The notes under the pieces were generated by a model. It saw nothing but the letters and a program-made list of their open reading frames with translations. It was not told the origin of the DNA and ran no database searches. A stretch of 39,656 nt of DNA. Source: Rufibacter ruber. GTDB lineage: Bacteria > Bacteroidota > Bacteroidia > Cytophagales > Hymenobacteraceae. Position 1 is the stretch's first letter, and each line of letters begins with the position of its first letter. Location of the stretch: contig NZ_LRMM01000051.1 in the NCBI RefSeq assembly GCF_001647275.1, positions 1 to 39,656 on the forward strand, in the 5' to 3' direction. The translations under genes and the position numbers were made by a program. This document shows, piece after piece, positions 1-39,634 of this stretch.

Positions 1-29
1 CTGTTTTCGCGAAAACAGCCCGGAAACAG
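1..29. repeat. Nested palindrome copy 1 (cut by window edge)
   Basis: Inner CTGTTTT arm, then AAAACAG-CCCGG-AAACAG. The outer left arm lies before position 1. Confidence 0.6.
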
Positions 30-103
30 AAAAAGTTTGTGTAGGGGTTGTCTCTTCTTTTGAAGGGATGGGTTTGGCTGTTGCTTCTGCTTTGGCAATG
101 TGC

Positions 104-177
104 GGTCTGCTGTTCCCTTTGCTGGGCAGTTTGCTGCAGTGCCTTTATTTTAGGAATGCGTGGTCTGCTGTTCCCTT
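104..177. repeat. Direct repeat, 16-bp unit, 58-bp spacing
   Basis: GGTCTGCTGTTCCCTT occurs exactly at 104-119 and 162-177. The preceding bases (AATGTGC / AATGCGT) are also similar, so this is a slightly longer degenerate direct duplication. No function is evident. Confidence 0.6.
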
Positions 178-230
178 GGCTTTGGCGGTTGACGCAATGC
201 CTTACTCACTGCGTTGTTTCATCTTTACCG

Positions 231-347
231 GTGAGCGCTCACGGCCGCGGGGCCACGTCCTGGCGGTGAGCACTGCTGTTAAAACTAGGCCCTCCGGCCT
301 TGCCGCTGGAGCGGCACCGTATTAACAGAGGCGCTCACCCCCAGGAC
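231..347. other. Multibranched palindromic structure, possible ncRNA
   Basis: Arms that can pair: GTCCTGG 257-263 with CCAGGAC 341-347; GGTGAGC 265-271 with GCTCACC 333-339; CTGTTAA 275-281 with TTAACAG 322-328. Inside these are two compact hairpins, AGGCC-CTCC-GGCCT (287-300) and TGCCGC-TGGA-GCGGCA (301-316). The perfect palindrome GTGAGCGCTCAC at 231-242 could compete for the GTGAGC/GCTCAC pairing. Further stem potential continues to about 450. No known RNA family was recognised, and either strand could be the functional one. Confidence 0.45.
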
Positions 348-555
348 TGGTTCAGGTTCCTCTCCTGATCAGCTTCCCTTGTTTTGTCTGCCTCTGCAGG
401 TAACCGCTGCTGTTCCGCTAGCCTGTGGCGAGCCCGTGCTGCGCACATCAGCCAGGGGCAGAAGTGCTAATTAACCCAGGTGCCACCAGCAGAAGCGTTG
501 ATTGTTCATTGTTGTTTGCTTGCTTACTTATTGCTGCTTGTTTGCCGCTTTCTCT

Positions 556-738
556 GGTTCAAGTTTCCAACTTGGACCTATAATGACGGAAGCTTCCAGC
601 TTCCATGAGGCGGCAGCCTCACATTACCTCTGCCCTCTATAGCTCCCTCTTCTGCCCCTCTATGGCGCGGAAGTTACTTCCGTGCCTTCTAACGCTACCT
701 GATACTCACGCGCTGGCGCGGGCCTCCAGACTCGTGCC
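556..738. repeat. Chain of short hairpins (GGAAGT / CGAGTCT type)
   Basis: Successive palindromes: 556-578 (GGTTCAAGT/ACTTGGACC), 588-604 (GGAAGCT/AGCTTCC), 664-686 (GGCGCGGAAGT/ACTTCCGTGCC) and a degenerate one at 715-738 (GGCGCG..CGTGCC ends). The same family recurs at 39311-39505. They look like REP-type or MITE-type intergenic palindromes. Confidence 0.6.
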
Positions 739-1003
739 TACTGATGACGGGCGGTCTCTGGCTGCCCTCGCGGCGCGGCTGCGAGACCAGGCATTGCTGT
801 TTCATTCCTGCTGAATTGCCTAAGATGAAAAGAAAGGACTCTGAACTCAGGACTCAGAACTCACTTCGATATTCCCCCTTGGAAGGGGGCGAAGGGGGAT
901 GTTGACACGTGCAGATCCACGCATGCCAGATGTACTGCCCCCCTCATTTGCTCCCATGCATGCCAGATCACTCCCCTCCCGGGAGGGGAAGGTGTGGGTC
1001 CCA

Positions 1004-1275
1004 TACGCCTGCCCCCGCTGTATCGCCTGCTCAAAAGACCTCGTAGCGTCTTTCAGACCTGCGAGCGTCTGTGCCAGTAGCTTCTGCCATAACAACATGA
1101 ACCATTTCCCCTCCTCCTGACCTTCTCCCGCAGGGAGCAGGTACACCGCTATGCTGTTTCTGGCCTGTTTTCCTGAAAACAGCCCAAAAACAGAACCTAC
1201 GCCTGCCCCGCTGTGCCGCCTGCTCCAAAGAGCTGATAGTGCGCGCAGCTCCTGCGGGCGTCTGCGCCAATAGCC
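1004..1275. repeat. Degenerate tandem duplication (~80-bp units)
   Basis: 1004-1082 and 1199-1275 share a common course (TACGCCTGCC..CCGCTGT..CGCCTGCTC..AAAGA..GCGTCTG..GCCA.TAGC). They are separated by a CTCCC/GGGAG palindrome and one nested palindrome. Non-coding. Confidence 0.5.
1154..1193. repeat. Nested palindrome copy 2
   Basis: CTGTTTCTGGCCTGTTTT - cct - GAAAACAGCCCAAAAACAG pattern, both arms with two CTGTTT units 11 bp apart. Confidence 0.75.
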
Positions 1276-1330
1276 TCAGCGAACATAATGCCACGGGAGG
1301 GGGGCTGCTTCAGGAGGCAAGCATAGAAAA

Positions 1331-1367
1331 AGCGTCGCTGTTTTTTGAAAAACAGCCCGAAAACGCT
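1331..1367. repeat. Nested palindrome copy 3, just after antiporter stop
   Basis: AGCG..CTGTTTTT and AAAAACAGCCCGAAAACGCT pair. It lies 24 nt past the stop of the minus-strand antiporter gene, and on that strand it is followed by a T-run, so it can act as its terminator. Confidence 0.65.
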
Positions 1368-1391
1368 TTTAACTTTTTAAAAGATCAGTTG

Positions 1392-2768
1392 CTACAGAAT
1401 CACCAGCACCCAGATCAGCGCGAGCACGGGCAGCAGGTAGACGAGGGAATATTTGAACATATATTGGAAGAACGGCGGCATTTTGACGCCAGCCTGCTCG
1501 GCAATGGCTTTCACCATAAAGTTGGGTCCGTTGCCAATGTAGGTCATGGCCCCAAATAAAACGGCCCCAATAGAAATAGCCTCCAGAACCAGCAACGTCT
1601 CAGGCGACTGCGCCAAGCCGTAGGCGAAATCATGAACCTGCGCGGTATTGGCGTAGTTCATGTGGTATTTGGCCATGCCCAATGATAGGAAATTGGCGTA
1701 GGTGGGAGCATTGTCCAGCACTCCGGAAAGGGAACCGGTGACCCAGTAAAACACCGAGGGGGTAAGTTTGGCGGCAAACTCAGGGGAAGAGGCCAGTTCG
1801 GCAGAAAGCTGCAAAGCCGGCATCATGGTGAAGAAAATCCCGAAGAACAGGAACACCACCTCCATGATGGGGTCAAAGGAAAAGTGGTTACCGTTCAAGG
1901 CGGTTCTGCTGGCGAACTTGAAGCAAAGAATGGCTGCGGTCAACTGAACAATCTCTCGTACAAAAGATACTTTGATGCCGCCTTCTAACGGAATGTACGG
2001 CAACCATTCATAGGAGGAGGGGTTCAGGAACGTGGCCCCTATGATGACCGCCAGCCATAGAATATTGCGCTTGCCGGTGAAGAAGAATTCGGTTTTGGCT
2101 TCATTGCGGGCCTTCACTTCCGCCTTGGGTATAAAGCCCTCCTTGTTGCGGCTGTCCAGGATAAAGAAGATAAGGCACAGCGCACTTACGGCAATGGCCC
2201 AAGGGGAGAGCAGGTGCTGCAGGGTCCAAAAGAAGGGAACCCCTTTCAGGAAACCAATGAACAGCGGCGGGTCACCCAATGGGGTCAGCATGCCGCCCGC
2301 GTTGCTCACAATAAAGATAAAGAAGACAATCTGGTACGGCTTTATGCGGTGGTTGTTTAACCGGATAAACGGCCTGATGAGCAGGAGGGAAGCGCCGGTG
2401 GTGCCTATCACATTGGCAATCACCGCGCCCACCACCAAAATACCCACGTTGATAATAGGTGTAGCATTGGCGTTGGCGTTGATATAAATTCCGCCAGCGG
2501 CGATGTACAAAGAGGAGAGCAGAATGGCAAACGAAGCGTACTCAGCCAAGGTCTCAGCCGGCATGTGGTGGTCATGCAGCACAAAAAGGTAGTAGGCCAG
2601 CACCAGCAGCCCCAGGCCAACGGCAATCACTTTGAAATTCTTATGCCAGAAGTGCGGGAAAAAAATGGGGCCGGTGGCAATCAAACCAATCAACAGCACA
2701 AATGGGGCAATCAGGTAACCAGGAACGTCTGGCGGGGTGGCAGACAGTAACACGGTGTAGTTAAGCAT
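1392..2768 (-). CDS. Na+/H+ antiporter-like CitMHS/NhaD-type membrane protein
   Basis: A polytopic inner-membrane transporter of the ion transporter superfamily, probably exchanging Na+ (or an organic anion) for protons. The 458-residue protein is almost entirely hydrophobic helices. The family-typical pore segment SNAGGMLTPLGDPPLF lies near residues 155-170. Later motifs include SGVLDNAPTYANF and YIGNGPNFMVKAIAEQ; such paired Asn/Asp/Gly motifs occur in NhaD and citrate-type carriers. I place the start at the ATG at 2768, where MLNYTVLL begins; an upstream in-frame ATG at 2822 would add 18 polar residues with no signal character. The gene stands alone, diverging from the Nfu gene. Substrate is inferred from family only. 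Confidence 0.85.
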   Translation of the reverse strand: MLNYTVLLSATPPDVPGYLIAPFVLLIGLIATGPIFFPHFWHKNFKVIAVGLGLLVLAYYLFVLHDHHMPAETLAEYASFAILLSSLYIAAGGIYINANANATPIINVGILVVGAVIANVIGTTGASLLLIRPFIRLNNHRIKPYQIVFFIFIVSNAGGMLTPLGDPPLFIGFLKGVPFFWTLQHLLSPWAIAVSALCLIFFILDSRNKEGFIPKAEVKARNEAKTEFFFTGKRNILWLAVIIGATFLNPSSYEWLPYIPLEGGIKVSFVREIVQLTAAILCFKFASRTALNGNHFSFDPIMEVVFLFFGIFFTMMPALQLSAELASSPEFAAKLTPSVFYWVTGSLSGVLDNAPTYANFLSLGMAKYHMNYANTAQVHDFAYGLAQSPETLLVLEAISIGAVLFGAMTYIGNGPNFMVKAIAEQAGVKMPPFFQYMFKYSLVYLLPVLALIWVLVIL

Positions 2769-2914
2769 GAGGCGCGGGTTTAATGAACAATCAACGGGGG
2801 TAAAGTTACGGTTTCTGATCAAAAACCTGCCCCCTTTCTGCCGCGTTTTGTGAGGAGGGGCTCCCCGTGGGGCGTGGTACCCAAGAGGGAACTGCGCGGT
2901 AAGGTATTTTTACC

Positions 2915-2922
2915 TAATTTTG
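2915..2922 (+). promoter_or_regulatory. Possible Bacteroidota -7 element of nfu gene
   Basis: TAATTTTG matches TAnnTTTG and lies 50 nt before the ATG at 2973. No clear TTTG -33 box is seen at the right distance. Confidence 0.35.
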
Positions 2923-2972
2923 GAAACTTAAAGAGCAGGTAGTTAGTTTTTACTATATTAAAGAGACCAGCC

Positions 2973-3590
2973 ATGACTGAAAATACAACCAAACCGGTAT
3001 CTGTGTACGCAGAGGCGAACCCAAATCCGGAATCAATGAAATTTGTGTTGAACTCCGTTCTGCTGGGTGACGGCGGAAGCGTGGACTACCCTACCGTGGA
3101 AAGCGCGGTAGAGTCGCCGTTTGCGCAGGAGCTGTTCAACTTTGACTACGTGAGCCGGGTGTTCATTGCCAGCAATTTTGTGACCATCACCAAGAACTCA
3201 CCGGTGCAGTGGGCGCAGCTCATCCCTGAGCTGAGAACCTTTATCAAATCATACGTAGAGGCCGGCGGTCCTATCTTCATAGGCACCCCCACCACCTCTA
3301 CCGCTGCCAGTGCGGCCGCTGACGTTTCTGGTGATTTGTCTGCCGAGGACACCGAGATCTCCCAGAAGGTGATTGATCTGCTGGAAAATTACGTGCGCCC
3401 GGCGGTAGAGCAAGACGGCGGTAACATCACCTTCAAGTCTTATAAGGAGGGAATTGTGACGGTGAACCTGCAAGGCTCCTGCAGCGGCTGCCCGTCTGCC
3501 ACGGTCACCTTGAAAGCCGGTATTGAGAACCTGCTCAAGCGCATGGTGCCCGAGGTGCAGGAAGTAGTGGCCGAAGGCGTGGTACTGTAA
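2973..3590 (+). CDS. Nfu-type iron-sulfur cluster scaffold protein
   Basis: A 205-residue Fe-S carrier that would hold a cluster between two subunits and hand it to apo-proteins. The N-terminal Nfu_N domain (about 12-105) begins with NPNPESMKFVL and contains the ESPFAQELF stretch. A short Ala/Thr/Ser linker follows (105-122). The C-terminal NifU domain (about 127-203) carries the cluster-ligating CxxC at Cys170 and Cys173 (GSCSGCPSATVTL). Both domains are intact and the length is normal for eukaryote-like/Bacteroidota Nfu proteins. It is monocistronic, closed by a strong terminator 20 nt downstream. Confidence 0.93.
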   Translation: MTENTTKPVSVYAEANPNPESMKFVLNSVLLGDGGSVDYPTVESAVESPFAQELFNFDYVSRVFIASNFVTITKNSPVQWAQLIPELRTFIKSYVEAGGPIFIGTPTTSTAASAAADVSGDLSAEDTEISQKVIDLLENYVRPAVEQDGGNITFKSYKEGIVTVNLQGSCSGCPSATVTLKAGIENLLKRMVPEVQEVVAEGVVL

Positions 3591-3745: not shown

Positions 3746-3785
3746 CTGTTTTTGACCTGTTTTCCTGAAAACAGGCCAAAAACAG
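3746..3785. repeat. Nested palindrome copy 4
   Basis: CTGTTTTTGACCTGTTTT - cct - GAAAACAGGCCAAAAACAG; a near-perfect example of the consensus. Confidence 0.8.
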
Positions 3786-4108
3786 AGGCAACCCCTCCCC
3801 GGGCAGAGCCCTTGCACCTTGGTCAGGCACTTAGGAGATTGCTTCTAGGCTCTTACAGACGCTTTGGCGTTAAGAGGTTCATAATTTAAATACATTTTGT
3901 AAACTCCTTTCACTTACCTCTTGCAGGCATCTTCCATTTCTTAGATGTTGATTTTACAGCATGTTGAGTAGCGTACTTTCCTTTGTGGGTTTTTTAGAAT
4001 TCCTGACGCTTTCATACTACACCTGATTAGAGTTTTTCCCTTTTTCTTTGGGTGATGTGTTCTGGGTTTTGGCTGCCTTGGCAGGGCACAAGCCTGGGCA
4101 TATGCCTA

Positions 4109-4147
4109 CGTTTTGGGGCTACTTTCCAAAAAACAGCCCGGAAACAG
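4109..4147. repeat. Nested palindrome copy 5 (GGCTACTTT variant)
   Basis: CGTTTTGGGGCTACTTTCC / AAAAACAGCCCGGAAACAG. It belongs to the sub-type whose left arm reads GGCTACTTT instead of GGCCTGTTT, shared with the 17610, 17939 and 18115 copies. Confidence 0.7.
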
Positions 4148-5106
4148 ATGCTTACTTATCGTAAGGCCACATGCGGACGCTTGCGCCATAACTATATATA
4201 GAATCTCTAAAACAGCCTCAATTTATTCGCTTTAAAATTATATAATCTCTTTAAAGTTCTGTTTTTGAAAAATATTGCTCCTGCTTCTATTGTTAATCAA
4301 GTAACAAATTTGGTGCCTTGCTGTCTTGTGAAATAATTCCTTTTAAAATTTGACCTTTTGGCTTATTGTTAGAGGGAAGGTGTTGTAAATGGCTGCTTTA
4401 TTTCAGAGATGCTTTATTATTAAAATAATTTTTACAAAATTTGGACAACTATCATCCTTCCCCCTCTATTGATAGTCAGTCTCTTTTAGGTAATCCTTTT
4501 GGAGCAATAGCTTTCCTGTTTGGTTTTATTTGTCATGGATGAAAAAGGAATGCCGTTGGTGTGCTGTTTTGTAATTTTTAGATATTGATTTTGTTCTGCA
4601 TGCTTGCGCTAAGGCATGTTTTGTAAGTTTAATGTTCTATAAGTGCAATTAATTTTATCTCATTAGTCTGCTTGTAAAGCTCTTAAAGTAGAATCTATGG
4701 ATATGGCATTTAGTTCGCCGCCATAGATAGAGAAGAATAACTATGAACTTACGCGAAAACTTGCTGGTGTTGATTCTAAGTTGATATAAGTGAACAAGTC
4801 TGCTTGATGGTGACAAAGGAGGGGATGCTTCATTGTTGTTGCTATTGCTGCAATGTATAGTGTGCAATCTAAATAGGTTTTATTACAGCCGGGCAGGTTT
4901 TTATTGTAAACCTGTAATTGCTTTCACCGCAAGTTATTTTTAAGTGGAATAGAATAACAGTCACAATCATGGGCTTGCAGATACTACTGGATGTTTGGTA
5001 TTAGTGGCAATGAGTGGTCAGTTCAACAGCAGGGGCTTATTGAGTTATTGGTTAGGAATAATATTCCACCTTTCAATTGCATAGATATTTTAAATTTAGT
5101 TTTAGT

Positions 5107-8100
5107 ATGATAAACACAGCTACTAAAGTCATTTTGCTTTTATTAGTGTTGTTCTCTCACGAAGTCTTCGCTCAAAAAATTGAAGACTTCGAAAATGAGG
5201 CCACTTGGCCATGGTCGCCCTGGGTTGGTGGTGCTGGAACCATATCAGCGAGTGCTGCTTTTTCAGGTTCAAAGGGAATTACAAACCCTGCATGGGTGCA
5301 CAGGACAGATGTAAGCTTGGGAGATCCTGGCCATAAGCTTTCTGCCTGGGGTAAATTTACTGCAACTGGGAGGATCTATCTCGGCTTTGGGGCTAGTGCC
5401 GCTGGTGCTCACTCCTTTATCATGGCGCCAAACACTAATCAACTTTTATTTCAGGCTAATGCCAACTACGGGTTTGTTGATCTTGTCTCAAAGCCCTTCA
5501 CTTACCAGTTGAATAAGTGGTATAGAATGGAAGTGCTTTGGGTAAATAGTACCACCATTGAAGGCAGAGTGTATGATTCAGATGGTGTTACAGAGTTGAT
5601 CATGCTTTCACTGACAGCCACAGTGCCGCGCGGAGGGGTTGCTTTGAGAGGGATTGGAGGTGCTGATGTAGATGATATCTTTTCAGGTCCTTTTACAAAT
5701 AAAACTGCTCCTGTTATTACCTCAAACGGTGGTGGGGCAACTGCAGATATCTCTTTAAGTGAGAATATAAAAGTGGCCACCTCAGTAGTGGCTACTGATA
5801 ATGAAAGGGATGCCGTTACGTACAGCATCTCTGGCGGTGAAGATCAGGCTATGTTTGAGATAGACCCTACAACGGGTTCTTTATCTTTTAAAACTGCTCC
5901 TGACTTCGAGAATCCAGCAGATGTTGGTCTAAACAATACGTATGAGGTGATTGTACGGGCCACAGAAAATACTGCGGAAAAACTGTATGATGAGCAGACC
6001 ATAACGGTTACAATAACTGATGTGGATGAAATTGCCCCGTTCATAGTCTCCATTAAACGGCAAAATCCAATCCAAGAGTATGTCAACGATACTTTCGTTA
6101 CCTTCAGGGTTACCTTCAGTGAAGAAGTGACGGGCGTGAATAATACAGATTTCAACGCCACAGAGGGGGGCACAATTGGTAGCCTGATCCAGCCCGTGAC
6201 CAAACTGTCAGGTACAGAGTACGACGTGCCGGTGCAGATTTTGTCTGGTGAAGGCTCCCTCCGCTTAGACTTGTATAGAAATGCTTCCCAAACGGGCATC
6301 ATGGACCTTGCGGGAAATGGGCTGAACACCCTCTACAATACCGGTGAATCTTATACTATAGATCGAACCGCCCCAGCCGCCCCATCCCAGCCTGATCTGC
6401 TTGCCTCCAGTGACTCCGGTGCCAGTGATTCTGATAACCTAACCAACCAATCGAAGCCCACCTTTACAGGTACCGCGGAAAAAGGGGCTAAGGTGAAAGT
6501 ATTTGCGGGTGGGGTAGAGATTGGTTCGGCCGTGGCAGATGCAACCTCTGGTATTTGGCAAGTTTCCTCCAGTTCTGCTCTTGCGGATGGCCCACATGCC
6601 ATTTCTGCCACGGCTACTGATGCGGCGGGCAATGTGAGCCCTGGAAGCACCACCCTGGCTATTACAATAGATGCCACGGCCCCTGCCAAGCCTGTTAAGC
6701 CAGACTTGATGGCCTCCAGTGATACAGGGTCCAGTGACTCAGATAAATTGACCAATGATACCACCCCAACACTTACAGGAACTGCCGAGGTGGGTACCAC
6801 TGTGCATGTATACGCTGGGGCGGTAGAAGTGGGATCTGCCACGGCTGGGGCAGATGGCTCCTGGCAAATCACTGCCACTGCTTTGACTGCTGGGGTATAC
6901 AGCTTTACCGCTACCGCCACAGATATAGCCGGAAACACAAGCGTTGCCAGTGACGCGCTTTCTGTGACAATTGATACAGATAAACCCACGGCTCCGGTCA
7001 TTGCCCGTATTGCTGATGATTCTGGTGTCAGCAACAATGACGGCCTCACCAATGACCAAACCCTAACCCTGAGCGGTACTGCAGAGGCGAGCCTGTGGGT
7101 AAAGATATATAATCTAGCTTCAGGCTCCTTGGTAGGCAACGCTACCGCTACGGCCAGTGGTAACTGGTCTGCAGCACTTCCAACCCTAACAGAAGGGGAG
7201 CATACGTTTTATGCAATGGTGACTGACTTAGCGGGCAACGAAAGTATCGCCAGCAACACCTTTACGGTTACAGTAGATCTGACCAAACCTACTATCACTG
7301 AAGTAGTTCTCCCTGCCGCCAAAACATACGGTGTTGGAGAACAACTGGACTTTAAGGTAAAGTTCTCAGAAATGTTGAGTGCCACCGGGTTCCCAAGACT
7401 TACCATTACCGTTGGCTCTACCTCCAGAACCGCTACCTGGCAGAACCAGGTGGAGTCTAATGAATGGGTATTCCGCTACACCGTGCAGGCAGGAGATCTT
7501 GATGTTAACGGAATCGCTTTTGCCCTGAATGAACTAGTGGTGCCTACCGGCGATGTGTTTGACCGGGCAGGCAACAGCCTGGTGCGGACGTTTACCCCAG
7601 GTGCCATGACAGATATTCTGATAGATGGTGTGGCACCTGCAATTACCTCTGTGTCAGTTCCTGCCAACGCTACCTACGTGAATGGGCAGACTATGAATTT
7701 CACCGTGAACTTCACTGAGCCGGTGACTGTGGGGGGAAGCGGTTCCCTGGGGCTTGATTTTACCCCAGATGAGGGAGGGACTCAAACGGCGGCTTACGTG
7801 TCTGGCAGCGGTTCTTCTGCGCTGGTATTTCGCTACACTGTGGCCGAGGGAGTGAAAGATGGGAACGGTATTCAGCTAGCCTCTAGCCTAACCCTTTCTG
7901 GCGGCATGACCCTAATTGACGCCCCGGGTAACAATGCCAATACGCAGTTGAACAACGTTGCCTCTACCACCGGGGTGCTGATAGACGGCACTGCCCCAAG
8001 CGTACTCTCTGTGACGGTGCCTGCCAATGGAACTTATGTGGCGGGAGATAACCTGGACTTCTCAGTCACCTTCTCCAAACCAGTGGAGGTCTCGGGCGGA

Positions 8101-11100
8101 ACACCTGGTTTGCCTATCTCCATTGGTACTGAAACCGTTCAGGCAACCCTGACGGGAGGAAGTGGCACTAGCACCCTTTCGTTCCGCTACACCGTGCAGA
8201 ACAATGACTTTGACTCGAATGGGATCTCACTGGCTGCCTCTATTGCATCCAGCGGCGCAACCTTGAAAGACGCTTCGGGTAACGCGGCCAATCTGACTCT
8301 GAAAAATGTTCCGGCAACCAGCGGTGTTTTGGTAGATGCCGTGGCCCCTCAATTGACAGTGGTGAACATCGCTTCCAGCAATGCCAACCCGGCCAGAGCC
8401 AAAGTAGGCGATGTGGTGACCGTCACTATCACCGCCAATGAGCCTATCCAGGCACCAGTGGTGACCATTGCCGGGAAAACCGCAACTGTCTCCGCAGTAG
8501 GTACTTCCACCAGCCAATACACGGCCAGCTACACCATGACTTCCGCTGAGGCGGAGGGGGCTGTGCCTTTCAGCGTCGCTTTTAAAGATGCCATTGGCAA
8601 CACAGGTGCCGCAGTAACGGCTACCACTGATAACAGCAGCGTGGTGTTTGACAGAACGGCACCGGTTCTCAACTCAGTAACCATTGCCTCTAATAACGCA
8701 GACGCCGCCAAAGCCAAGGTGGGTGACGTGGTGACCGTCAGCTTTACCGCAAATGAAGCGATCAGAACGCCTAACGTTACTATTGCAGGGAACGCCGCCA
8801 CGGTGACAGCTATTTCAGGCAACAGCTACAGTGCCGCCTATACCATGGCAGCTAATGATGTAGAGGGAGCCGTGGCTTTCCAGATTGATTTCAGTGATGT
8901 CACAGGGAATGCGGCCACTGCGGTCTCAGCTACCACAGACAATAGCCTGGTATTGTTTGACAAAACCAAACCTGCCTTATCCTTCGTGGCTATTGCCTCC
9001 AGCAATGCAGACGCCACTAAGGCCAAGGTAGGAGACGTGGTAACGGTAAGTTTCACGGCAGATGAAGCGATCAAAACACCCACCGTGAAAATCGCAAACC
9101 AAGCTGCCGCTGTGGTAGCAGGCACCGCAGCAAACAGTTACACCGCTACCTACACCATGGCTGCCTCAGACCCCGAGGGGAATGTCGCCATCAGCATTGC
9201 CTTTCAGGATGTGACAGGAAATGCCGGAACCACGGTAACAAGCACTACCAACAACAGCCGCGTGGTGTTTGACAGAACTTCTCCGGTGCTGGCTTCGGTG
9301 ACCATTGCCTCTAACAATGCAGATGCGGCCAAAGCCAAAGTAGGGGACGTGGTGACCATAAGCTTTACAGCTTCTGAGCCTATCATGACGCCTACCGTGT
9401 CTATAGCAGGTCATGCCGCCACGGTGACCTCTGGTGCCGTTGCCAATAGCTATACGGCTGCATATACCATGGCTGCCAGTGACCCTGAAGGTCCGGTAAC
9501 TTTTGAAATCAAATTTACTGATGTAACCGGGAATGCGGCAGTTGCCGTAACGGCTACCACCAACAACAGCCGGGTGGTATTTGACAGAACTGCTCCTTCC
9601 CTGACTTCGGTGGCCATTGCCTCCAGCAACGCAGACGCCGCCAGGGCGAAAGTAGGTGATGTAGTGACGGTGACGTTAACGGCCAATGAGGCAATCATGA
9701 CGCCAATAGTCACCATTGCGGGTCAAACTGCCACTGTTACAGCCGGCACAGGGAATACCTATACGGCCAGCTACACCATGGCCGCCACAGATGCAGAGGG
9801 CACAGTAGCTTTCAACATCAGCTTTAAAGACGTGACAGGCAATGAGGGGGCAGACGTGAACCGCACCACAGACAACAGCCTGGTAGTGTTTGACATTACA
9901 GCCCCTGTGTTAACCTCTGTAGCTATTGCCTCCAGCAACGCAGATGCCGCCAAAGCCAAAGTGGGCGATGTGGTAACGGTGAGCTTCACTGCAAATGAGG
10001 CAATCAAGACGCCAGCAGTGACCATTGCCGGAAATGCCGCCACGGTAACCGCCGGTACAGGCAATGCCTACAGCGCCGCCTACACCATGAAAGCAAATGA
10101 TACCGAGGGCACCGTAGCCTTCAGGATCAACTTCGCAGACGTAACGGGCAATGCGGCTACTGCTGTAACGGCTACCACCAACAGTAGTAGTGTTGTATTT
10201 GATAGAACCGCTCCAGTATTAACAGCTGTGACTATTGTGTCTAACAACGCCAGTGCCACAAGGGCAAAAGTAGGGGATGTTATAACGGTAAGTTTCACTT
10301 CCAATGAGCCTGTCATGACCCCGGTAGTGACCATAGCCGGAAACGCGGCCACCGTTACTGCTGGTACTGCCGCTAATAGCTATACTGCCACCTACACCAT
10401 GGCCAGCAGTGACCCTGAGGGACTGGTAGCTTTTAATATTAGTTTCACAGATGTGACAGGTAACCCGGGGGCAGCGGTAAACACCACCACCAACGGCAGC
10501 AGCGTACTCTTTGACAGAACGGCTCCGGCCGGCTATGGGGTGGCCTTTGTGCAGAATATGGTAACGGTGAACAACAGCAGTGCCATCACACTACGGGTAA
10601 CCAATGCTGAACCAAACATCCCTTACAGCTACACGGTCACCAGCGCTGCGGGCGGTACTCCGGTGACGGGCTCGGCTACTGCCATAACTGGTAACTTTGA
10701 CATTGCTAATGTAAACCTGAGTGGCCTCAATGACGGCATGCTCACGGTCACATTCTTCCAGACCGACCTGGCGGGCAACCGCGGAGCAAACGTCACGGCT
10801 CAAGTAATGAAGTACCGGAACATGGTTTCTGTTGCAAGACCGGCTGCTTTACAGGTTCCTTACCGCACCACGTTCGCGCAACTAACCAAGCCTGCTACGG
10901 TTGAAGTGAGCTTCTCTAACGGCAGCAAGCAGCAGGTGGCCGTTACCTGGCTGCCAGGTAATTATAGCACAGACGGGAAGGGAGCCGGTGAGTATGTGTT
11001 GACAGGAACCCTTGCCGTACCATCAGACGCTACCAACCTCTCTAACCTGACGGCGGAGTGGACGGTGCGCATCATGCCAAACAAAGCGCCTACTGATATC

Positions 11101-17243: not shown

Positions 17244-17293
17244 AAGCCCTGTTTTCGGGCTGGTTTTACAAAATCAGCCCGAAAACAGGGCTT
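17244..17293. repeat. Nested palindrome copy 6, extended arms
   Basis: A 24-bp arm (17244-17267 with 17270-17293) with one mismatch. The extra AAGCC/GGCTT outside the usual CTGTTTT/AAAACAG ends is also palindromic. Confidence 0.85.
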
Positions 17294-17609
17294 GGGTTTC
17301 TGAAAGGGAAATAGGCAGAAGCATCACAAGAGTTTAACACACCAGCAGATCTGGGCAGGGTGAAGTGCTGGCCAAGCAGTATTAGAGTTGCATGGCAGCG
17401 TTACGGAGAAAAGATGCGAATCCTGTTTTTAGAGTGCGCAGCGTCAAGTATCAGCTGAACAGGTTCATTAATAAATGGTGAGCAGAAAATAATCCCTTCA
17501 TTATGGAGATAGAGCCGGTATAGAGCCTGTAGCTGGTTACAGTTTTCCTTTTTCTATCGTTAGGGCCGTGACTGACCCTGGCATGGGCGTAAGCATCCGC
17601 TTGTGCCGG

Positions 17610-17648
17610 CGTTTTGAGGCTACTTTCCCAAAAACAGCCCGGAAACAG
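17610..17648. repeat. Nested palindrome copy 7 (GGCTACTTT variant)
   Basis: CGTTTTGAGGCTACTTTCC / AAAAACAGCCCGGAAACAG, preceded by an arm GGCGTAAGCATCCGCTTGTG. Confidence 0.7.
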
Positions 17649-17938
17649 AAATTTTACCCTCTTCAATACAGAAGCGGATGCTAGCGCCGTCACTTATACT
17701 AAAAAACTTTAAACAGTTTCCTTGTTTCTATTTTGATTGTGCAGGGAAAACGGGGCGCGAAAGGTTCTTCTGTACCGTTTTTGAGCAGCATTGCAGCGTT
17801 ATGTTGTGAGGGAAAGGCAATGTCTGGCACATCAGATGTCGGTTTGCAGCGCAAAAAATCAGATTTCAACATGCTTTAAAAGTATTTTCCCTTGCCATGA
17901 AAGAGCCTTTTGTGGTGCAAACGTCTGCTTACGCCCAC

Positions 17939-17977
17939 GTTTTTGGGCTACTTTTAGAAAAATAGCCCGAAAACAGA
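17939..17977. repeat. Nested palindrome copy 8 (GGCTACTTT variant)
   Basis: CGTTTTTGGGCTACTTTT / GAAAAATAGCCCGAAAACAG. Confidence 0.7.
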
Positions 17978-18114
17978 AATCCCCTTCCCTTGCGGCTGAT
18001 TGAGAGAAAGGGAATTTAAAACAGGTACTCTGCGCAAGCTCTAATCTGGAACCCGTGTAGAGTTTCTGCTTTCCTTTCTGAAGGGGGGGCTGCAAGCGTC
18101 TTCTTGTGCGCTGC

Positions 18115-18153
18115 CGTTTTAGAGCTACTTTTCAGAAAACAGCCCTAAAACAG
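18115..18153. repeat. Nested palindrome copy 9 (GGCTACTTT variant)
   Basis: CGTTTTAGAGCTACTTTTC / GAAAACAGCCCTAAAACAG. Confidence 0.7.
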
Positions 18154-18411
18154 GGCGCAGGTCAATTCTTACTGCACTAGTTCACCCTGCGCCCTGGATA
18201 AAACGAAAGATTCAAACCAGCCTTTTCAATTCACGCTGCAATCAGCCTCCGCGAGAACTAACCTCGGGCCTTTGTCTGACTTCATTGCACCAAGCGGTCC
18301 AAAATTCCTTTGCCAGAAACTTTCACCGGCCGTGTGCGCCTATCTGTCCAAAATGGTGAAAATGCTCTGTACTTATGCAAGTTGGGGGGAAAGGCTATGG
18401 TTGCTGCTTCG

Positions 18412-18450
18412 CGTTTCTGGCTTGTTTTTCAGAAACTAAGCCAAAACTGG
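18412..18450. repeat. Nested palindrome copy 10 (degenerate)
   Basis: CGTTTCTGGCTTGTTTTTC / GAAACTAAGCCAAAACTGG; the most decayed recognisable copy. Confidence 0.5.
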
Positions 18451-21547: not shown

Positions 21548-21684
21548 AGGTTGGTTAAAATGAAAATAGAAATAATATGATAAGAAAATGTGGCTGGTAC
21601 GCTGGCGGCCCATAGAATGGGCGCGGCTGTATGTAGCCAAACAGAATACCCCGGCAACCTGGGGCCGCAGAAAAGAATGAATGC

Positions 21685-22889: not shown

Positions 22890-22938
22890 CTGTTTTGGGG
22901 CTGTTTTGGGGCTGTTTTGGCCAAAACAGCCCCAAAAC
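22890..22938. repeat. Nested palindrome copy 11 with three 11-bp units
   Basis: CTGTTTTGGGG occurs twice, then CTGTTTTGG/CCAAAACAG closes the palindrome. The left side therefore has three CTGTTTT units spaced exactly 11 bp. It begins 13 nt past the rdgB stop. Confidence 0.85.
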
Positions 22939-22951
22939 CAAGAAAAATAGC

Positions 22952-23790: not shown

Positions 23791-23856
23791 CAGCGGTGCC
23801 TGTCTGTTTTGGGGCTGTTTTTCAGAAAACAGCCCCAAAACAGACAGGCACCGCTG
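23791..23856. repeat. Nested palindrome copy 12, perfect 31-bp arms
   Basis: Left arm 23791-23821 is the exact reverse complement of 23826-23856, with a TCAG loop. The core CTGTTTTGGGGCTGTTTT is extended outward by a perfectly paired 13-base flank. Confidence 0.95.
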
Positions 23857-26837: not shown

Positions 26838-26877
26838 CTGTTTTAGCGCTGTTTTTAAGAAAACAGGCCAAAAACAG
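26838..26877. repeat. Nested palindrome copy 13, 8 nt after mlaD stop
   Basis: CTGTTTTAGCGCTGTTTTT - AAGA - AAACAGGCCAAAAACAG pattern between two converging genes. Confidence 0.8.
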
Positions 26878-27879: not shown

Positions 27880-27957
27880 TATGCTTAAATTTGGTTAGAT
27901 GATATACTACGCGGTGAAGATAGGAAAAAGGGCGTCACCTGAAAATTATTTAATGGC

Positions 27958-28107
27958 TGATTGTTAATTGCTTTTTAATTGTTGATTGTCAATTGTTGTT
28001 TTAGGCCTGTTTCTTAGAAACAGTCTCTAAACGGCTTTCTCTTGGGTTCCTTCACAAATCGGTCAGCTTAAGCTGCTGCCTTTCTAACAATCAACAATTA
28101 ACAATCA
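27958..28107. repeat. AT-rich inverted repeat between mdh and tilS
   Basis: TGATTGTTAATTG (27958-27970) is the exact reverse complement of 28095-28107. GTTGATTG (27981-27988) pairs with 28088-28095. The nested palindrome copy 14 sits between the arms. Confidence 0.75.
27996..28034. repeat. Nested palindrome copy 14 (degenerate)
   Basis: TTGTTTTAGGCCTGTTTC - TTA - GAAACAGTCTCTAAACGG; the inner arms are perfect, the outer arms decayed. Confidence 0.6.
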
Positions 28108-28118
28108 GCAATGAACAA

Positions 28119-29447
28119 TCAAATTCGGGTCACGGTAATCTCCAGCACCTGCTGGGTATTCTCACTGATCTTGAACCGGTTGTCTGGCTGGTGACCAATG
28201 ATCCAGGCCAGTGAGGCGTCTGAGACCAGCACCCACACGTCTGGCTTGAGGTTGGCGGGCACCTTCTTGTCAATGAGCAGGTCGCTCACCTTCTTCTTGC
28301 CGTTCATGCCCAGCGGGATAAACCAGTCGCCCTGTTTCCAGGGGCGCAGTTTGAGGGGGAACCTTACCAGTTCGGCGTCAAGGGCCACCGTGTCTTTGGA
28401 ACGGGGTATCTTGTAGCCTTCGGCCGATTTGCGGGTTATTTTTGCCAGATAAGGTCCAAAAGTGAGTTGGGTGGCTTGTTCTGGCAGCGCCACGCTGCCA
28501 AACACCTCCAGGTTTTTGGCGGTGATCACCAGTTCCTCCCGGTCTTTCACCAGCACATGGGTGGGGGAGGCGAAGGACTTGCCTGAGAGGCCGGCAAAGG
28601 CGGCTGCTACCTCCTGCGCCTGCACGTAGGAGAACTGGAACGGTTTTAGCAGCTCATGCAGCAGCACTACCGGCGCGGGGCTTTGCTGCAGCGGCGCAAT
28701 AGAAAGGTAGGTGGTGCCGTTCTCTGTGCGTTGCGTTTTTGCCCTGATTTCCTGAAAAGAGGCCAGAAACACGGCTTCTGCGCCCTGCAGGCGCTCCAGG
28801 GTCTGGGTAAACGTTTCCTCCAGGTTGGGGTTGAGCTGCTTGAGCACGGGAACCACCTCGTGGCGCACCAGGTTGCGGGCGTACTTTCTGCTTTCGTTGC
28901 TGGAATCTTCCCGCCACGCCAGGCGTTTAGAGGTGAGCCAGTCGTACAGGTCGTCTTTGGTGAGGGCCAGCAGCGGCCGGATCAGGTGCCCGTTCTGGGG
29001 CAGAATGCCGTGCAGGCCCGCCAGGCCCGTGCCGCGCACCAGGTTGAGCAGCACGGTCTCCAGCGCGTCTGACTTGTGGTGTGCCGTGGCAATGGCGTCA
29101 TACCCCAGCTGGGTGCGCATCTGCTCAAACCAGGCGTAGCGCAGGGAGCGGGCCGCCATCTGGATGGAAATGCCTTCCTGCTGGGCAAAGGCCTCGGTCT
29201 GGAACTGCTCGCTGTAGAACGGCACGCCGTACTGTTTGGCCAGTTTGCGCACAAAGAGCTCATCTGCGTCAGACTCCTCGCCCCGCAGACCAAAGTTGCA
29301 GTGCAGCACGGCAAAGGGAACCTTTAAGCGGTGCAGCACATCGGCCAGTACCACAGAGTCCAGGCCCCCGCTCACGGCGGCCAGAATTTTAGTGGTAGGG
29401 GAAAGCAGCTGATGGCTGTCTATATAGTGTTGAACTTTCTGGAGCAT
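28119..29447 (-). CDS. tilS: tRNA(Ile)-lysidine synthase
   Basis: Attaches lysine to C34 of the AUA-reading tRNA-Ile, using ATP; essential in most bacteria. The protein is 442 residues, full length for TilS. The PP-loop SGGLDSVVL is near residue 25. The HCNFGLRGEESDADELFV motif and GYDAIATAHHKSDALETVLLNLVRGTGL follow in the catalytic domain. A C-terminal TilS-C domain (~360-435) contains KLRPWKQGDWFIPLGMNGKKKVSDLLID. The stop codon lies inside an ATGAACAATCAA repeat word on the + strand. Confidence 0.95.
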   Translation of the reverse strand: MLQKVQHYIDSHQLLSPTTKILAAVSGGLDSVVLADVLHRLKVPFAVLHCNFGLRGEESDADELFVRKLAKQYGVPFYSEQFQTEAFAQQEGISIQMAARSLRYAWFEQMRTQLGYDAIATAHHKSDALETVLLNLVRGTGLAGLHGILPQNGHLIRPLLALTKDDLYDWLTSKRLAWREDSSNESRKYARNLVRHEVVPVLKQLNPNLEETFTQTLERLQGAEAVFLASFQEIRAKTQRTENGTTYLSIAPLQQSPAPVVLLHELLKPFQFSYVQAQEVAAAFAGLSGKSFASPTHVLVKDREELVITAKNLEVFGSVALPEQATQLTFGPYLAKITRKSAEGYKIPRSKDTVALDAELVRFPLKLRPWKQGDWFIPLGMNGKKKVSDLLIDKKVPANLKPDVWVLVSDASLAWIIGHQPDNRFKISENTQQVLEITVTRI

Positions 29448-34784: not shown

Positions 34785-34824
34785 CTGTTTTCGGCCTCTT
34801 TTCCCAAAAACAGGCCGAAAACAG
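34785..34824. repeat. Nested palindrome copy 15, 3 nt after DUF4835 stop
   Basis: CTGTTTTCGGCCTCTTTTC - cc - AAAAACAGGCCGAAAACAG. The only terminator-like hairpin in the DUF4835-recN gap. Confidence 0.8.
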
Positions 34825-36689: not shown

Positions 36690-36694
36690 TCTTT

Positions 36695-36734
36695 CTGTTT
36701 TGAGCCTGTTTTTCAGAAAACAGGCCCAAAACAG
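36695..36734. repeat. Nested palindrome copy 16, 5 nt after recN stop
   Basis: CTGTTTTGAGCCTGTTTTTC / GAAAACAGGCCCAAAACAG. Confidence 0.85.
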
Positions 36735-36985: not shown

Positions 36986-37029
36986 AAACAGAAGCGCCGC
37001 CGGAGCAATTGGGCGGCGCTTCTGTTTTT
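36986..37029. terminator. Strong GC-rich terminator between recN and cupin
   Basis: A 16-bp stem (36986-37001 with 37012-37027) followed by TTTTT. Its 3' arm contains the first CTGTTTT of nested palindrome copy 17, so the two hairpins cannot form together. Confidence 0.88.
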
Positions 37030-37061
37030 AAGCTGTTTTTCAGAAAACAGGCCCAAAACAG
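37022..37061. repeat. Nested palindrome copy 17, overlaps a terminator
   Basis: CTGTTTTTAAGCTGTTTTTC / GAAAACAGGCCCAAAACAG, 30 nt past the cupin gene stop. Confidence 0.8.
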
Positions 37062-37091
37062 CCAAGTAGAGACCTTGCTGCCATGGCTGGC

Positions 37092-37466: not shown

Positions 37467-37469
37467 GGG

Positions 37470-37715: not shown

Positions 37716-37963
37716 AGCAGTGGGTATTGGTAGTTATACGGTCTGCTCCGGCGAAAGATAAGCCGCTTAGGGGGCAGGCTAAAGTAAAAAATTATGGCGC
37801 TGCCGCTTAAAACAGCTAACCTGGGACCGAGTAAATCCGTAAGTAATTTTATATATATGCAAATATATATTTATTGTGAAGCAAAACGGCGGCAGAGCCT
37901 TCTGGTTTACCCGCCCAGCTACTTACAACCTACAATAGAACCTTAACCCTTATTCATTTTCGT

Positions 37964-38254: not shown

Positions 38255-38290
38255 GCGCCGGCAGCCCGGGTGGGTTAGCCCAAAATAACC

Positions 38291-38368
38291 AAATGAGTTC
38301 TTTCCCGTTAAAATAGAACTGACGCTATATAGGGTTGGTATTTCTAACGGAAAGAACTCATTTTTTTT
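38291..38368 (+). terminator. Long-stem terminator between the two ytxH genes
   Basis: AAATGAGTTCTTTCC-C-GTTA (38291-38310) pairs with TAACGGAAAGAACTCATTT (38345-38363) with one bulged base and a 34-nt loop. A T-run ends at 38368. The first gene's start motif follows 11 nt later in the second gene. Confidence 0.75.
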
Positions 38369-38379
38369 AAAGTACTACT

Positions 38380-38901
38380 ATGAAAGACAACGGAAAAATC
38401 ATTCTGGCTTTGCTGGCAGGCGCTAGCGCCGGTGTGGTGGCTGGTATCTTAATGGCACCTGAAGCCGGTGAGAGCACCCGCGGCAACCTGAAAAAGTCCG
38501 CCTCAAAACTGAGCCAGGGACTCAATGAAAAATTGCAGGGCAGCATGGACCAGTTGCAGGCCCTTACCGCCAGTGCTGGCGCCCTGGTAGGCCGCAAAGG
38601 CGGTTCAAAGGGAGCCGCGGCAGATGTGGTGAACACGGGTTCTAACACTACTGCTACCTCTCACCTGGACAATAACCCCACCGGCGGCAACGTAGATGCC
38701 GCTGGCGCTACCAGCTCCAGCCTGGGCAACACCGGCGGAACCAATGATGCCCCTGCCAGCAGCGGCAAAAAATCAAAAGGTGGCACCGGCGCATCAGGCA
38801 AGAAAGCCACTGATACCACCACCACAAAGGCCAAGTCTTCTGCAAGCAGCGGGCAGGGCTCTTCTAAGGGATCTGGCGGCGGTTCAAACGCCTCTGCCTA
38901 A
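38380..38901 (+). CDS. YtxH-family protein with long Gly/Ser/Thr tail
   Basis: 173 residues. MKDNGKIILALLAGASAGVV and GILMAPEAGESTRGNLKKSA carry the YtxH signature. A helical Ser/Lys/Leu part (to ~70) is followed by ~100 residues of Gly/Ser/Thr/Ala/Lys-rich sequence, likely disordered. It is a paralogue of the preceding gene; the pair probably arose by tandem duplication and diverged in the tail. Each has its own transcription unit, judging by the terminator between them. Confidence 0.85.
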   Translation: MKDNGKIILALLAGASAGVVAGILMAPEAGESTRGNLKKSASKLSQGLNEKLQGSMDQLQALTASAGALVGRKGGSKGAAADVVNTGSNTTATSHLDNNPTGGNVDAAGATSSSLGNTGGTNDAPASSGKKSKGGTGASGKKATDTTTTKAKSSASSGQGSSKGSGGGSNASA

Positions 38902-39125
38902 CTTTTTCTGCGGGCTTTGCAACTTTGTACGGGCAAGGCCGTTAAAGCAAGTAGATATGATTGGTTAAATAGTGAAAGCGAAACCGATGAAGGGATGCAA
39001 AGCAGAAGCTTGGCGTTGAAACTTAATATGAGAGATCGATTTAGATTTAGTTTTTAAGGGATACGTTGAGTGCGAGGTAGAACAACATCAAGTAAGTAGC
39101 AAAAGACGTTATTTAACCAATATAA

Positions 39126-39155
39126 GAAAGCCTTCCCAGACGGGGAAGGCTTTCT
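39126..39155 (+). terminator. Terminator downstream of second ytxH gene
   Basis: A 12-bp perfect stem (39126-39137 with 39143-39154), 5-base loop. The T-run is short. Confidence 0.75.
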
Positions 39156-39170
39156 GCATTTACAGCCTTT

Positions 39171-39210
39171 CTGATTTTGGCCTTATTTTCAGAAAACAGG
39201 TTAAAAACAG
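39171..39210. repeat. Nested palindrome copy 18
   Basis: CTGATTTTGGCCTTATTTTC / GAAAACAGGTTAAAAACAG; partly decayed. Confidence 0.65.
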
Positions 39211-39310
39211 GAAAGAAGTGATTGAGTAAGTGAGTGGCGCAGGAACGTTTAGAAGCAGGATTTACGGGATTTAGTGGATCTTCGGGGTTTAGTAACTTTC
39301 AAGTTTCGCT

Positions 39311-39505
39311 GGCGCGAGACTTCCGTCTCGTGACTGACCGTGCGGCGAGTCTCCAGACTCGCCGGGAACCACAAGATGGGAATTGGTGAAACAGGAGTCT
39401 GAAGACTCCACACACCCATCGGCACGAGTCTGGAGACTCGCGCCAGATATAATTGCCAGATAAAATCTCTTGTCTTTTCTACCAAACAGAAGGAAGTTAC
39501 TTCCG
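39311..39505. repeat. Hairpin chain, CGAGTCT/AGACTCG family
   Basis: Palindromes at 39311-39334 (GGCGCGAGAC..GTCTCGTG), 39344-39363 (GGCGAGTCT..AGACTCGCC), 39394-39409 (GGAGTCT..AGACTCC), 39421-39444 (GGCACGAGTCT..AGACTCGCGCC) and about 39491-39505 (GGAAGT..ACTTCCGTGG). It is related to the chain at 556-738. Confidence 0.8.
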
Positions 39506-39596
39506 TGGTTTTCTTCTGCTTGGTAGATGGCTGTTCTACCTTGAGCCGTTTCCCCTCATCCTACCCTTCTCCCAGAGGGAGAAGAACCCGCTTTTG

Positions 39597-39634
39597 CGTT
39601 TTCGGCCTGTTTTGGCCAAAACAGGCGAAAACAG
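39597..39634. repeat. Nested palindrome copy 19
   Basis: CGTTTTCGGCCTGTTTTGG / CCAAAACAGGCGAAAACAG; centre is a perfect GGCC-type join with no loop. Confidence 0.8.

What the first reader, a model, noticed from the sequence alone, without database searches (positions are those of the whole stretch)
1..39634. Dispersed nested palindrome with 11-bp internal period
Seen: about 19 copies of a ~40-bp element, consensus CTGTTTT-NGGC-CTGTTTT / AAAACAG-GCCN-AAAACAG. Each arm is itself a direct repeat of CTGTTTT spaced 11 bp, about one helical turn. All copies are intergenic. Six lie 3-30 nt after a stop codon (antiporter, rdgB, mlaD, DUF4835, recN, cupin). Others sit in gene-free tracts. Known: REP/BIME elements act as mRNA stabilisers, terminators or gyrase/IHF sites and are spread by RAYT transposases. 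Inferred: a lineage-specific REP-like family, with the 11-bp phasing hinting at side-by-side protein binding on one DNA face. Density is about one per 2 kb.
Basis: partly seen in the sequence, partly recalled or inferred. Interest (0 to 1): 0.75.

Follow-up and report, generated by a model that had tools for sequence, protein, structure and literature searches.

The report
Genus-wide selected DNA dyad between genes
The repeated palindrome is real and does not behave like an ordinary jumping repeat: it belongs to a set of hundreds to thousands of DNA sites per genome, found only in Rufibacter bacteria among the genomes searched, that mostly stay at the same places in different species while their sequence shifts species by species, which suggests that an unknown protein reads them.

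Summary
Observation confirmed: 19 scored copies of a 40-bp dyad in the window (plus one cut by the left edge), about one per 2 kb. One strong copy lies inside tilS.

Spread by RAYT is not supported: the three RAYTs are flanked by other palindromes; one congener has no Y1 transposase yet keeps the dyads; many dyads recur in the same gaps of congeners although four-fold sites are only 50-62% identical; the tilS dyad arose without indel; synonymous change is lowest at two intragenic dyads. Seven species compared show different consensuses ("dialects") on one skeleton, mostly also at orthologous sites. Density is convergent > tandem > divergent. G-U and A-C mismatches do not differ in the transcript sense, which points to double-stranded DNA rather than RNA, though arms pair slightly above chance.

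Best reading: a selected recognition site for an unidentified, co-evolving DNA-binding protein at gene boundaries. Main rival: a self-DNA (uptake-like) signal. Protein and function are not shown.

The parts
1..29 (.). dyad copy cut by the left edge of the window
1154..1193 (.). 40-bp dyad
   Evidence: score 57.9
1327..1366 (.). weak dyad, 25 nt after the stop of the CitMHS-type antiporter (complement 1392-2822)
   Evidence: score 16.9; Pfam CitMHS_2
3746..3785 (.). 40-bp dyad behind the NifU-like gene (2973-3590)
   Evidence: score 57.9; Pfam NifU
4108..4147 (.). dyad inside a composite with a RAYT-type REP (REP-A copy at 4166)
   Evidence: score 47.1
17249..17288 (.). 40-bp dyad
   Evidence: score 51.5
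17609..17648 (.). dyad inside a composite with REP-A (17584)
   Evidence: score 46.4
17937..17976 (.). dyad, same CTACTTT variant as the REP-A composite
   Evidence: score 48.8; family D9
18114..18153 (.). dyad, same variant
   Evidence: score 48.9; family D9
18411..18450 (.). weaker dyad behind the secDF-like gene (complement 18557-21640; name from its translation, not from a family search)
   Evidence: score 34.5
22901..22940 (.). dyad, 11 nt after the rdgB stop
   Evidence: score 43.7
23804..23843 (.). dyad in the divergent rdgB / mlaE gap
   Evidence: score 58.2
26838..26877 (.). dyad, 8 nt after the mlaD stop, beside a separate terminator-like hairpin
   Evidence: score 54.9; score 16 or more in the same gap in 9 of 14 congeners
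27996..28035 (.). degenerate dyad in the tilS-mdh gap
   Evidence: score 18.9; score 16 or more in 11 of 15 congeners
28733..28772 (.). dyad inside the tilS coding sequence
   Evidence: score 44.4; same codons in 15 of 15 congeners; no indel against 11 sister-genus genomes; lowest synonymous change of all windows of the gene
34785..34824 (.). dyad, 3 nt after the DUF4835 stop
   Evidence: score 55.8; 1-7 nt after the stop in 12 of 15 congeners
36695..36734 (.). dyad, 5 nt after the recN stop
   Evidence: score 55.4; score 16 or more in 10 of 15 congeners
37022..37061 (.). dyad, 30 nt after the cupin stop
   Evidence: score 54.5; score 16 or more in 11 of 14 congeners
39171..39210 (.). dyad
   Evidence: score 43.1
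39596..39635 (.). dyad near the right edge
   Evidence: score 36.5

Best explanation
The element is a dyad-symmetric recognition site in double-stranded DNA: two mirrored arms, each with two T blocks 11-12 bp apart around a GG-C core, and a 4-bp centre. It is kept by selection at hundreds to thousands of mostly conserved places per Rufibacter genome, usually at most one or two per intergenic gap and preferentially behind genes. The most likely mechanism is that an abundant, fast-evolving, genus-specific DNA-binding protein, perhaps two dimers side by side on the four T blocks, occupies these sites and marks or insulates gene boundaries: a transcription roadblock, supercoil insulator or local architecture. 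When its specificity drifts, the sites follow and a dialect results. Shown: abundance, genus restriction among the genomes searched, positional conservation in two regions, DNA-level constraint inside two genes, origin without indel in two genes, dialects, gap-wise distribution, lack of strand asymmetry. Inferred: that a protein reads the site, which protein it is, and the boundary role.
For: 16 of 16 Rufibacter genomes carry it (182-1902 skeleton matches). Outside: 3 of 394 other Bacteroidia have a single match; 11 sister-genus regions (220 kb) have none at score 10 or more. Same gaps, often the same offsets, in congeners although four-fold sites are 50-62% identical. No indel at the tilS dyad against 11 sister-genus genomes or at a glycosyltransferase dyad against 11 congeners that lack it. 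Synonymous differences lowest of all windows at tilS 28733 (0.158 against gene mean 0.381) and at C2 79268 (0.296 against 0.520). In six of seven species the sites of one region score best with the species' own matrix trained elsewhere (one, G005, by a hair: 36.0 against 35.8), and 21 of 25 orthologous sites do. Density convergent > tandem > divergent in all seven species. G-U 289 against A-C 265 cells in 251 sense-oriented elements (p 0.33), consensus symmetric to transcription within 0.07.
Against: No protein was identified and no function was tested. Mirror positions pair slightly more than independent arms would: complementary double changes 665 of 1074 against 594 expected; folding energy of real against arm-shuffled dyads z -1.2 to -8.3 in seven species. 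A cruciform or hairpin component is therefore possible. Sister genera with the same genes do without the site. Position is not perfectly kept: misses at recN (5 of 15), mdh (5 of 14), tilS 3' (4 of 15), cupin (3 of 14), and offsets at recN and cupin vary. A total of 42-49 bits in the five sharp dialects is more than finding a few thousand sites requires, which a self-recognition signal would explain more naturally. G003 (30 bits) and G008 (25.8 bits) have weak consensuses, and G008 sites do not prefer their own matrix. The positive control of the G-U / A-C test is small (14 against 5 of 24, p 0.064).
Confidence: 0.5

Rival explanations
1. A self-DNA recognition signal like the DNA uptake sequences of Neisseriaceae and Pasteurellaceae: biased uptake and recombination of dyad-bearing DNA from the same species makes and spreads the sites, and species differ by dialect.
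For: Copy number, genus restriction, dialects, gain in a coding sequence without indel and with raised local divergence (0.487 against gene mean 0.309, 92nd percentile), information beyond need. The Neisseria papers describe dialects with about 1900 to 4549 copies per genome (PMC3630211, passages) and DUS that arise by recombination and are conserved (PMC2397512, passages).
Against: The uptake words described there are 10-12 nt; this is a 40-bp dyad. Spacing is no more even than gap occupancy predicts. The strong bias to gaps behind genes is not needed for uptake. None of the three papers listed for uptake sequences with Bacteroidetes and natural transformation is about this, judged by title and start of abstract. 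Competence genes were not examined.
Confidence: 0.25
2. An RNA hairpin at transcript 3' ends: terminator, stabiliser or processing site.
For: Preference for the region behind stop codons; modest excess of pairing; convergent gaps with a dyad hold fewer terminator-like hairpins (52 of 205 against 40 of 103 gene ends, p 0.018).
Against: No strand asymmetry: G-U 289, A-C 265. U-rich 5' arm and A-rich 3' arm with no following U run, and a separate terminator-like hairpin in the mlaD-mdh gap. Dyads also in divergent gaps and inside genes. No difference in tandem gaps (41 of 274 against 42 of 243). No Rfam match in the window.
Confidence: 0.1
3. A REP-type mobile family spread by a RAYT or a lost transposase in the genus ancestor and now decaying.
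For: Palindromic, mostly extragenic, many copies, genus-specific. A RAYT-linked REP (REP-A) sits beside a dyad in 6 of 6 copies, so some dyads probably travelled in composites; the REP-A RAYT locus holds 8 dyads in 3.5 kb; dyads lie within 180 nt of 12 of 30 RAYT genes.
Against: The RAYTs have their own different flanking palindromes. A congener without any PF01797 match has 1171 skeleton matches. No indel at the tilS and glycosyltransferase dyads. Synonymous constraint at two intragenic dyads. Shared positions across the genus.
Confidence: 0.1

Closest known systems
DNA uptake sequences (DUS) of Neisseriaceae and their dialects
   Same: Thousands of copies per genome, clade-restricted, species dialects on a conserved core, intragenic and intergenic, conserved, appearing without being transposons (PMC3630211 and PMC2397512, passages seen)
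   Different: DUS are 10-12 nt words, and inverted pairs of them serve as terminators. Here the site is a 40-bp nested dyad, mostly in gaps behind genes, in Bacteroidota. Uptake not tested.
REP / BIME elements and RAYT (TnpA-REP) systems
   Same: Short palindromes between genes, often behind stop codons, in many copies; RAYTs are present in 15 of 16 of these genomes
   Different: No cognate RAYT found, no insertion signature at the intragenic sites examined, positions shared across a genus under near-saturated divergence, dialects
Flanking palindromes of TnpA-Y1 subclass 2.6 (Bacteroidetes RAYTs, PMC6006769: start of abstract and passages seen)
   Same: The three RAYTs of this genome resemble the published motifs (L029 NHLH / WQ / YIHQNP, L030 NHLH / WQ / YLHQNP, L028 SHVH / WQ / YVHTNP) and have palindromes on both sides with copies elsewhere, as that paper describes
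   Different: Those palindromes (GGCGC...GTGCC frame) are other sequences than the dyad
HIP1 of cyanobacteria (PMC4390886, search listing and start of abstract only)
   Same: Highly iterated palindrome in a bacterial lineage
   Different: 8 bp GCGATCGC, linked there to DNA methyltransferases; here 40 bp, degenerate centre, dialects

Membership tests
REP/RAYT (REPtron) | RAYT gene flanked by the element as its cognate repeat | tested here: not met
   each of three RAYTs has its own different palindrome on both sides; flanking inverted palindromes of at least 16 nt in 18 of 30 loci (7 of 600 shuffles); the match is a dyad pair in one locus (L057). Against: L030 also has dyad-like sequence about 30 nt before and 160 nt after the RAYT gene, and L028 / L083 lies in a dyad cluster.
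REP/RAYT (REPtron) | Element depends on a Y1 transposase in the genome | tested here: not met
   G006 has 0 PF01797 matches at E 0.001; it carries 1171 skeleton matches.
REP/RAYT (REPtron) | GTAG or CGTC tetranucleotide at the foot of the hairpin | tested here: not met
   flanks of the 192 copies, both sides pooled, show no conserved tetranucleotide; the only flank signal is T-rich at -1 to -3. Tags as in PMC3733652 (passages).
REP/RAYT (REPtron) | Spread by insertion | tested here: inconclusive
   Not met at the tilS dyad (11 sister-genus genomes) and at the glycosyltransferase dyad (11 congeners). The C2 78304 gene is too diverged in sister genera to judge. The weak HisRS site has length differences in 3 of 5 sister genera. 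Intergenic sites could not be judged, and REP-A composites suggest some movement.
DNA uptake sequence | Very high copy number with genome-wide dialects in a clade | tested here: met
   G008 did not prefer its own matrix
DNA uptake sequence | Enhances uptake or transformation of DNA | not testable with these tools
   Needs an assay
DNA uptake sequence | Competence machinery with a specific receptor | not tested
   No competence gene was searched
DNA uptake sequence | Short asymmetric word | tested here: not met
   a 40-bp dyad symmetric to transcription
Intrinsic terminator / RNA hairpin | Strand-specific RNA pairing (G-U tolerated over A-C) | tested here: not met
   289 against 265, p 0.33; small positive control 14 against 5, p 0.064. 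Some pairing excess without strand sense remains.
Intrinsic terminator / RNA hairpin | GC-rich stem followed by a U run | tested here: not met
   the 3' arm ends AAAACAG with A-rich flank; no T run
Known RNA family (Rfam) | Match above gathering score in the window | tested here: not met
   0 matches in 39656 bases

The most novel reading that the evidence does not exclude
Rufibacter has evolved a CTCF-like layer of chromosome punctuation: a 40-bp dyad in most convergent (118 of 157) and about half of the other (372 of 683) intergenic gaps of the seven species sampled (summed), read by one fast-evolving DNA-binding protein. The whole set of sites is rewritten together whenever that protein's specificity changes, so that each species speaks its own dialect and can tell its own DNA from that of relatives.
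Probability: 0.35. Interest if true: 0.93.

Novelty: new variant of a known kind. Interest (0 to 1): 0.8.

Why it matters
Genome-wide signals with dialects are known to me only as uptake sequences in two proteobacterial families (recalled, and PMC3630211, passages). A dyad of this size, kept at gene boundaries across a genus, under synonymous constraint inside genes and rewritten in concert per species, would give a natural experiment on how a DNA-binding protein and a thousand or more of its sites co-evolve. It would also show either a gene-boundary system or a self-DNA recognition system in Bacteroidota. Each option can be tested directly with a pull-down, a deletion and a transformation assay.

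Tried and rejected
REP with a cognate RAYT: rejected as the main account. Expansion in this genome alone: first suggested by exact counts (1322 here against 9-270 in congeners), rejected because a skeleton pattern finds 182-1770 in the congeners and species matrices find 0.32-0.46 per kb in the six sampled. RNA hairpin as the selected form: weakened, though pairing is slightly above chance. Terminator replacement: mixed result. Even spacing as for uptake signals: not beyond gap occupancy. Second tilS site at 28425: not constrained (48th percentile of synonymous change), dropped. HisRS internal site (C2 76243): weak (score 16-30 in 10 of 15 congeners; length differences in 3 of 5 sister genera), not used as evidence. 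Several of the 16 hits first called intragenic lie upstream of likely true starts (my reading); better start calls left 12 of 200 inside genes. Phage or plasmid carriage: no exact match in IMG/VR, no plasmid match. Covariance-model counts are capped at 150 scored places per genome and were not used. Stop-proximal against distal arm: 23.4 against 22.8, p 0.05, n 201, treated as no clear difference. Papers: uptake sequences in Bacteroidetes, Rufibacter with repeats and palindromes, Rufibacter with natural transformation (ten listed, none containing Rufibacter), REP in Bacteroidetes, REP with concerted evolution: judged by titles and starts of abstracts, none listed describes this element. These are all the searches behind any statement that it is not in print. 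One search stopped with an error after printing the window hits and its second half was run again.

Dropped rows: four of 60 sampled dyads were left out of alignment A2 because they were off register. Copies under score 25 were left out, under 15 out, under 20 out, under 18 out. In one search two congeners lacked one gene each in the stretch (mdh in G009, cupin in G011), hence 14. For G013 and G006 the tilS-mdh gap is longer than the 330 nt examined there. recN was found in 12 sister-genus genomes and 11 of these stretches were fetched (G040 left out). HisRS was found in 21 genomes and 20 stretches were fetched (G023 left out because its match was in two pieces). Of the 15 congeners only six were sampled with 200-kb stretches. 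Of the RAYT loci of the genus, 30 were fetched and tested; two of them are fragments.
Full report
WHAT WAS CLAIMED AND WHAT IS THERE. The half site occurs 39 times in the window with up to 3 mismatches against 5.55 in shuffles. A matrix learned from 382 kb of the genome scores 19 places at 10 or more, 17 at 25 or more, and one more copy is cut by the left edge. The six stop-codon distances are correct. One strong copy (28733-28772, score 44) is inside tilS, so 'all intergenic' is wrong.

GENOME AND GENUS. The window lies in a 5.50-Mb, 166-contig genome. The species of the window itself was not identified. Exact half sites number 1322 here and 9-270 in 15 congeners; none of 23 genomes outside the genus has one. 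Exact inner cores number 1063 here, 3-316 in 15 congeners and 0-2 in each of 104 other family members, 13 of which have any. A tolerant skeleton (up to 3 mismatches) gives 182-1902 in all 16 Rufibacter. Among 394 other Bacteroidia, 3 genomes have one match each and 391 have none.

NOT THE RAYT REPEAT. The genome has four Y1 transposases. Three are REP-associated tyrosine transposases above NCBI's cut-off and resemble subclass 2.6 of PMC6006769 (passages). Each has its own palindrome on both sides, in a GGCGC...GTGCC frame, in two cases inverted and in one (L028) in the same direction. L030 also has dyad-like sequence about 30 nt before the gene and 160 nt after it, and L028 lies in a cluster of dyads. 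Over 30 RAYT loci of the genus, 18 have flanking inverted palindromes (shuffles: 7 of 600) and 12 have a dyad within 180 nt, which is not remarkable at 0.62 dyads per kb with many gaps occupied. G006 has no PF01797 match yet 1171 skeleton matches. One RAYT-linked REP does sit beside a dyad: 6 of 6 REP-A copies abut one, against 3 of 20 and 1 of 15 for the other two REPs.

POSITION IS LARGELY CONSERVED. In 20-kb stretches around recN from 15 congeners I found 151 dyads (5-16 each) and none in block-shuffled sequence. Four-fold degenerate sites of shared genes are only 50-62% identical to this genome, so unconstrained DNA is near saturation. Nevertheless the best hit sits 1-7 nt after the DUF4835 stop in 12 of 15 congeners and scores 16 or more there in 14 of 15; it scores 16 or more behind mdh in 9 of 14, behind tilS in 11 of 15, behind recN in 10 of 15 and behind cupin in 11 of 14, and at the same tilS codons in 15 of 15 (scores 23-42; best of 600 shuffled intervals 1.1). 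Offsets are tight at DUF4835, mdh (49-62 nt in 8 of 9) and tilS (73-96 nt in 10 of 11) but vary at recN (9-12 or 52-68 nt) and cupin (6-67 nt). A second anchor, HisRS, gave a further intragenic dyad at the same place in 15 of 15 congeners and one behind that gene in 12 of 15, which this genome itself lacks. Eleven recN stretches (score 10 or more) and five HisRS stretches (score 15 or more) from sister genera have none.

ARISEN IN PLACE AND UNDER DNA-LEVEL CONSTRAINT. The tilS protein has the same length at the dyad in 16 Rufibacter and in 11 sister-genus genomes; the residues were replaced, not inserted. A glycosyltransferase dyad exists in this genome and not in the 11 congeners that carry the gene there, again without indel, with local divergence 0.487 against a gene mean of 0.309 (92nd percentile). 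Where the intragenic dyad is shared, synonymous codon differences are the lowest of all windows of the gene: 0.158 against 0.381 in tilS, 0.296 against 0.520 in the CHU_C-domain gene of contig 2; overall nucleotide divergence there is low but not the lowest when all species pairs are compared (21st and 12th percentile). In the weak HisRS site, 3 of 5 sister genera differ in length.

DIALECTS. Matrices re-estimated from 200-kb samples of six congeners and 382 kb of this genome give 0.32-0.54 sites per kb (by extrapolation some 1500-3000 per genome) and different half consensuses on one skeleton, for example ctGTTTTnGGSCTGTTTT here, gCGTTTaGgGGCtSTTTT in G004, YCGTTTTTgGccTgTTTT in G013, ccGTTTTcGGgCTCaTTT in G012. 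G005 is close to this genome, and G003 and G008 are weak (30 and 25.8 bits). In six of seven species the recN-region sites score best with their own matrix trained elsewhere, G005 only narrowly; G008 does not. At four orthologous sites 21 of 25 sequences prefer their own matrix.

DISTRIBUTION. In this genome 30 of 33 convergent, 86 of 131 tandem and 16 of 32 divergent gaps of at least 60 bp hold a dyad. Per kb the order is convergent > tandem > divergent in all seven species. The variance of counts per gap is below the mean in 13 of 15 type-by-length classes (in short gaps this is trivial; it is not so in convergent and divergent gaps over 1 kb), and the mean grows far less than in proportion to gap length. 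Gene calls are my own simple ones. Spacing is no more regular than gap occupancy predicts.

DNA OR RNA. Mirror positions mostly vary independently: position 10 is C or G almost freely in each arm. There is nevertheless a real excess of complementarity, clearest at positions 0, 6, 7 and 13 (z -1.2 to -8.3; 665 of 1074 double changes complementary against 594 expected, absent in three of seven species). In 251 dyads read in the sense of the upstream gene, G-U cells (289) do not exceed A-C cells (265), p 0.33, and the consensus is symmetric. Canonical terminators lean to G-U (14 against 5 of 24, p 0.064), but that control is small. I conclude that double-stranded DNA is the likelier selected form, possibly with a cruciform component. 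Terminator-like hairpins are less frequent in convergent gaps with a dyad (52 of 205 against 40 of 103) but not in tandem gaps, so some influence on transcript ends cannot be excluded.

CONCLUSION. A selected, genus-specific recognition dyad at gene boundaries, rewritten in concert by species, most likely read by an unidentified co-evolving DNA-binding protein. It works like genome-wide signals with dialects (DUS), or like a boundary site. It is a member of no family tested here: REP membership fails on tested features, and uptake-sequence membership cannot be decided without an assay.

Noticed in passing
L028 (C100), L029 (C97), L030 (C112): Three different REP-associated tyrosine transposases, each with its own palindrome family in a GGCGC...GTGCC frame on both sides; copies of these REPs are dispersed in the genome (6, 20 and 15 in 382 kb with up to 5 mismatches).
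   Followed up: partly
window 4084-4190 and 17584-17690; L028: Composite units in which a RAYT-linked REP abuts a dyad, in the window of a CTACTTT variant; a mobile repeat may have captured the host signal.
   Followed up: partly
L027:1489-1926 (C35): A 146-aa Y1 transposase with a YIKRQEEHH motif like that given for subclass 1.2 in PMC6006769, with two GAATGGGTTTTAACCCATTC-like palindromes upstream.
   Followed up: no
window 14781-17041: A cation/proton antiporter reading frame appears split into two overlapping frames near 15650, perhaps a frameshift or a sequencing error.
   Followed up: no
window 5077-11688: A 2203-aa protein with at least seven tandem repeats of about 309 nt.
   Followed up: no
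tilS-mdh gap, window 27879-28119 and congeners: The gap carries runs of CAATCAACAATCAGCAATCA-like simple repeats in most of the congeners shown.
   Followed up: no
L057 (G013): The only RAYT locus of 30 whose longest flanking inverted match is a pair of dyads.
   Followed up: no
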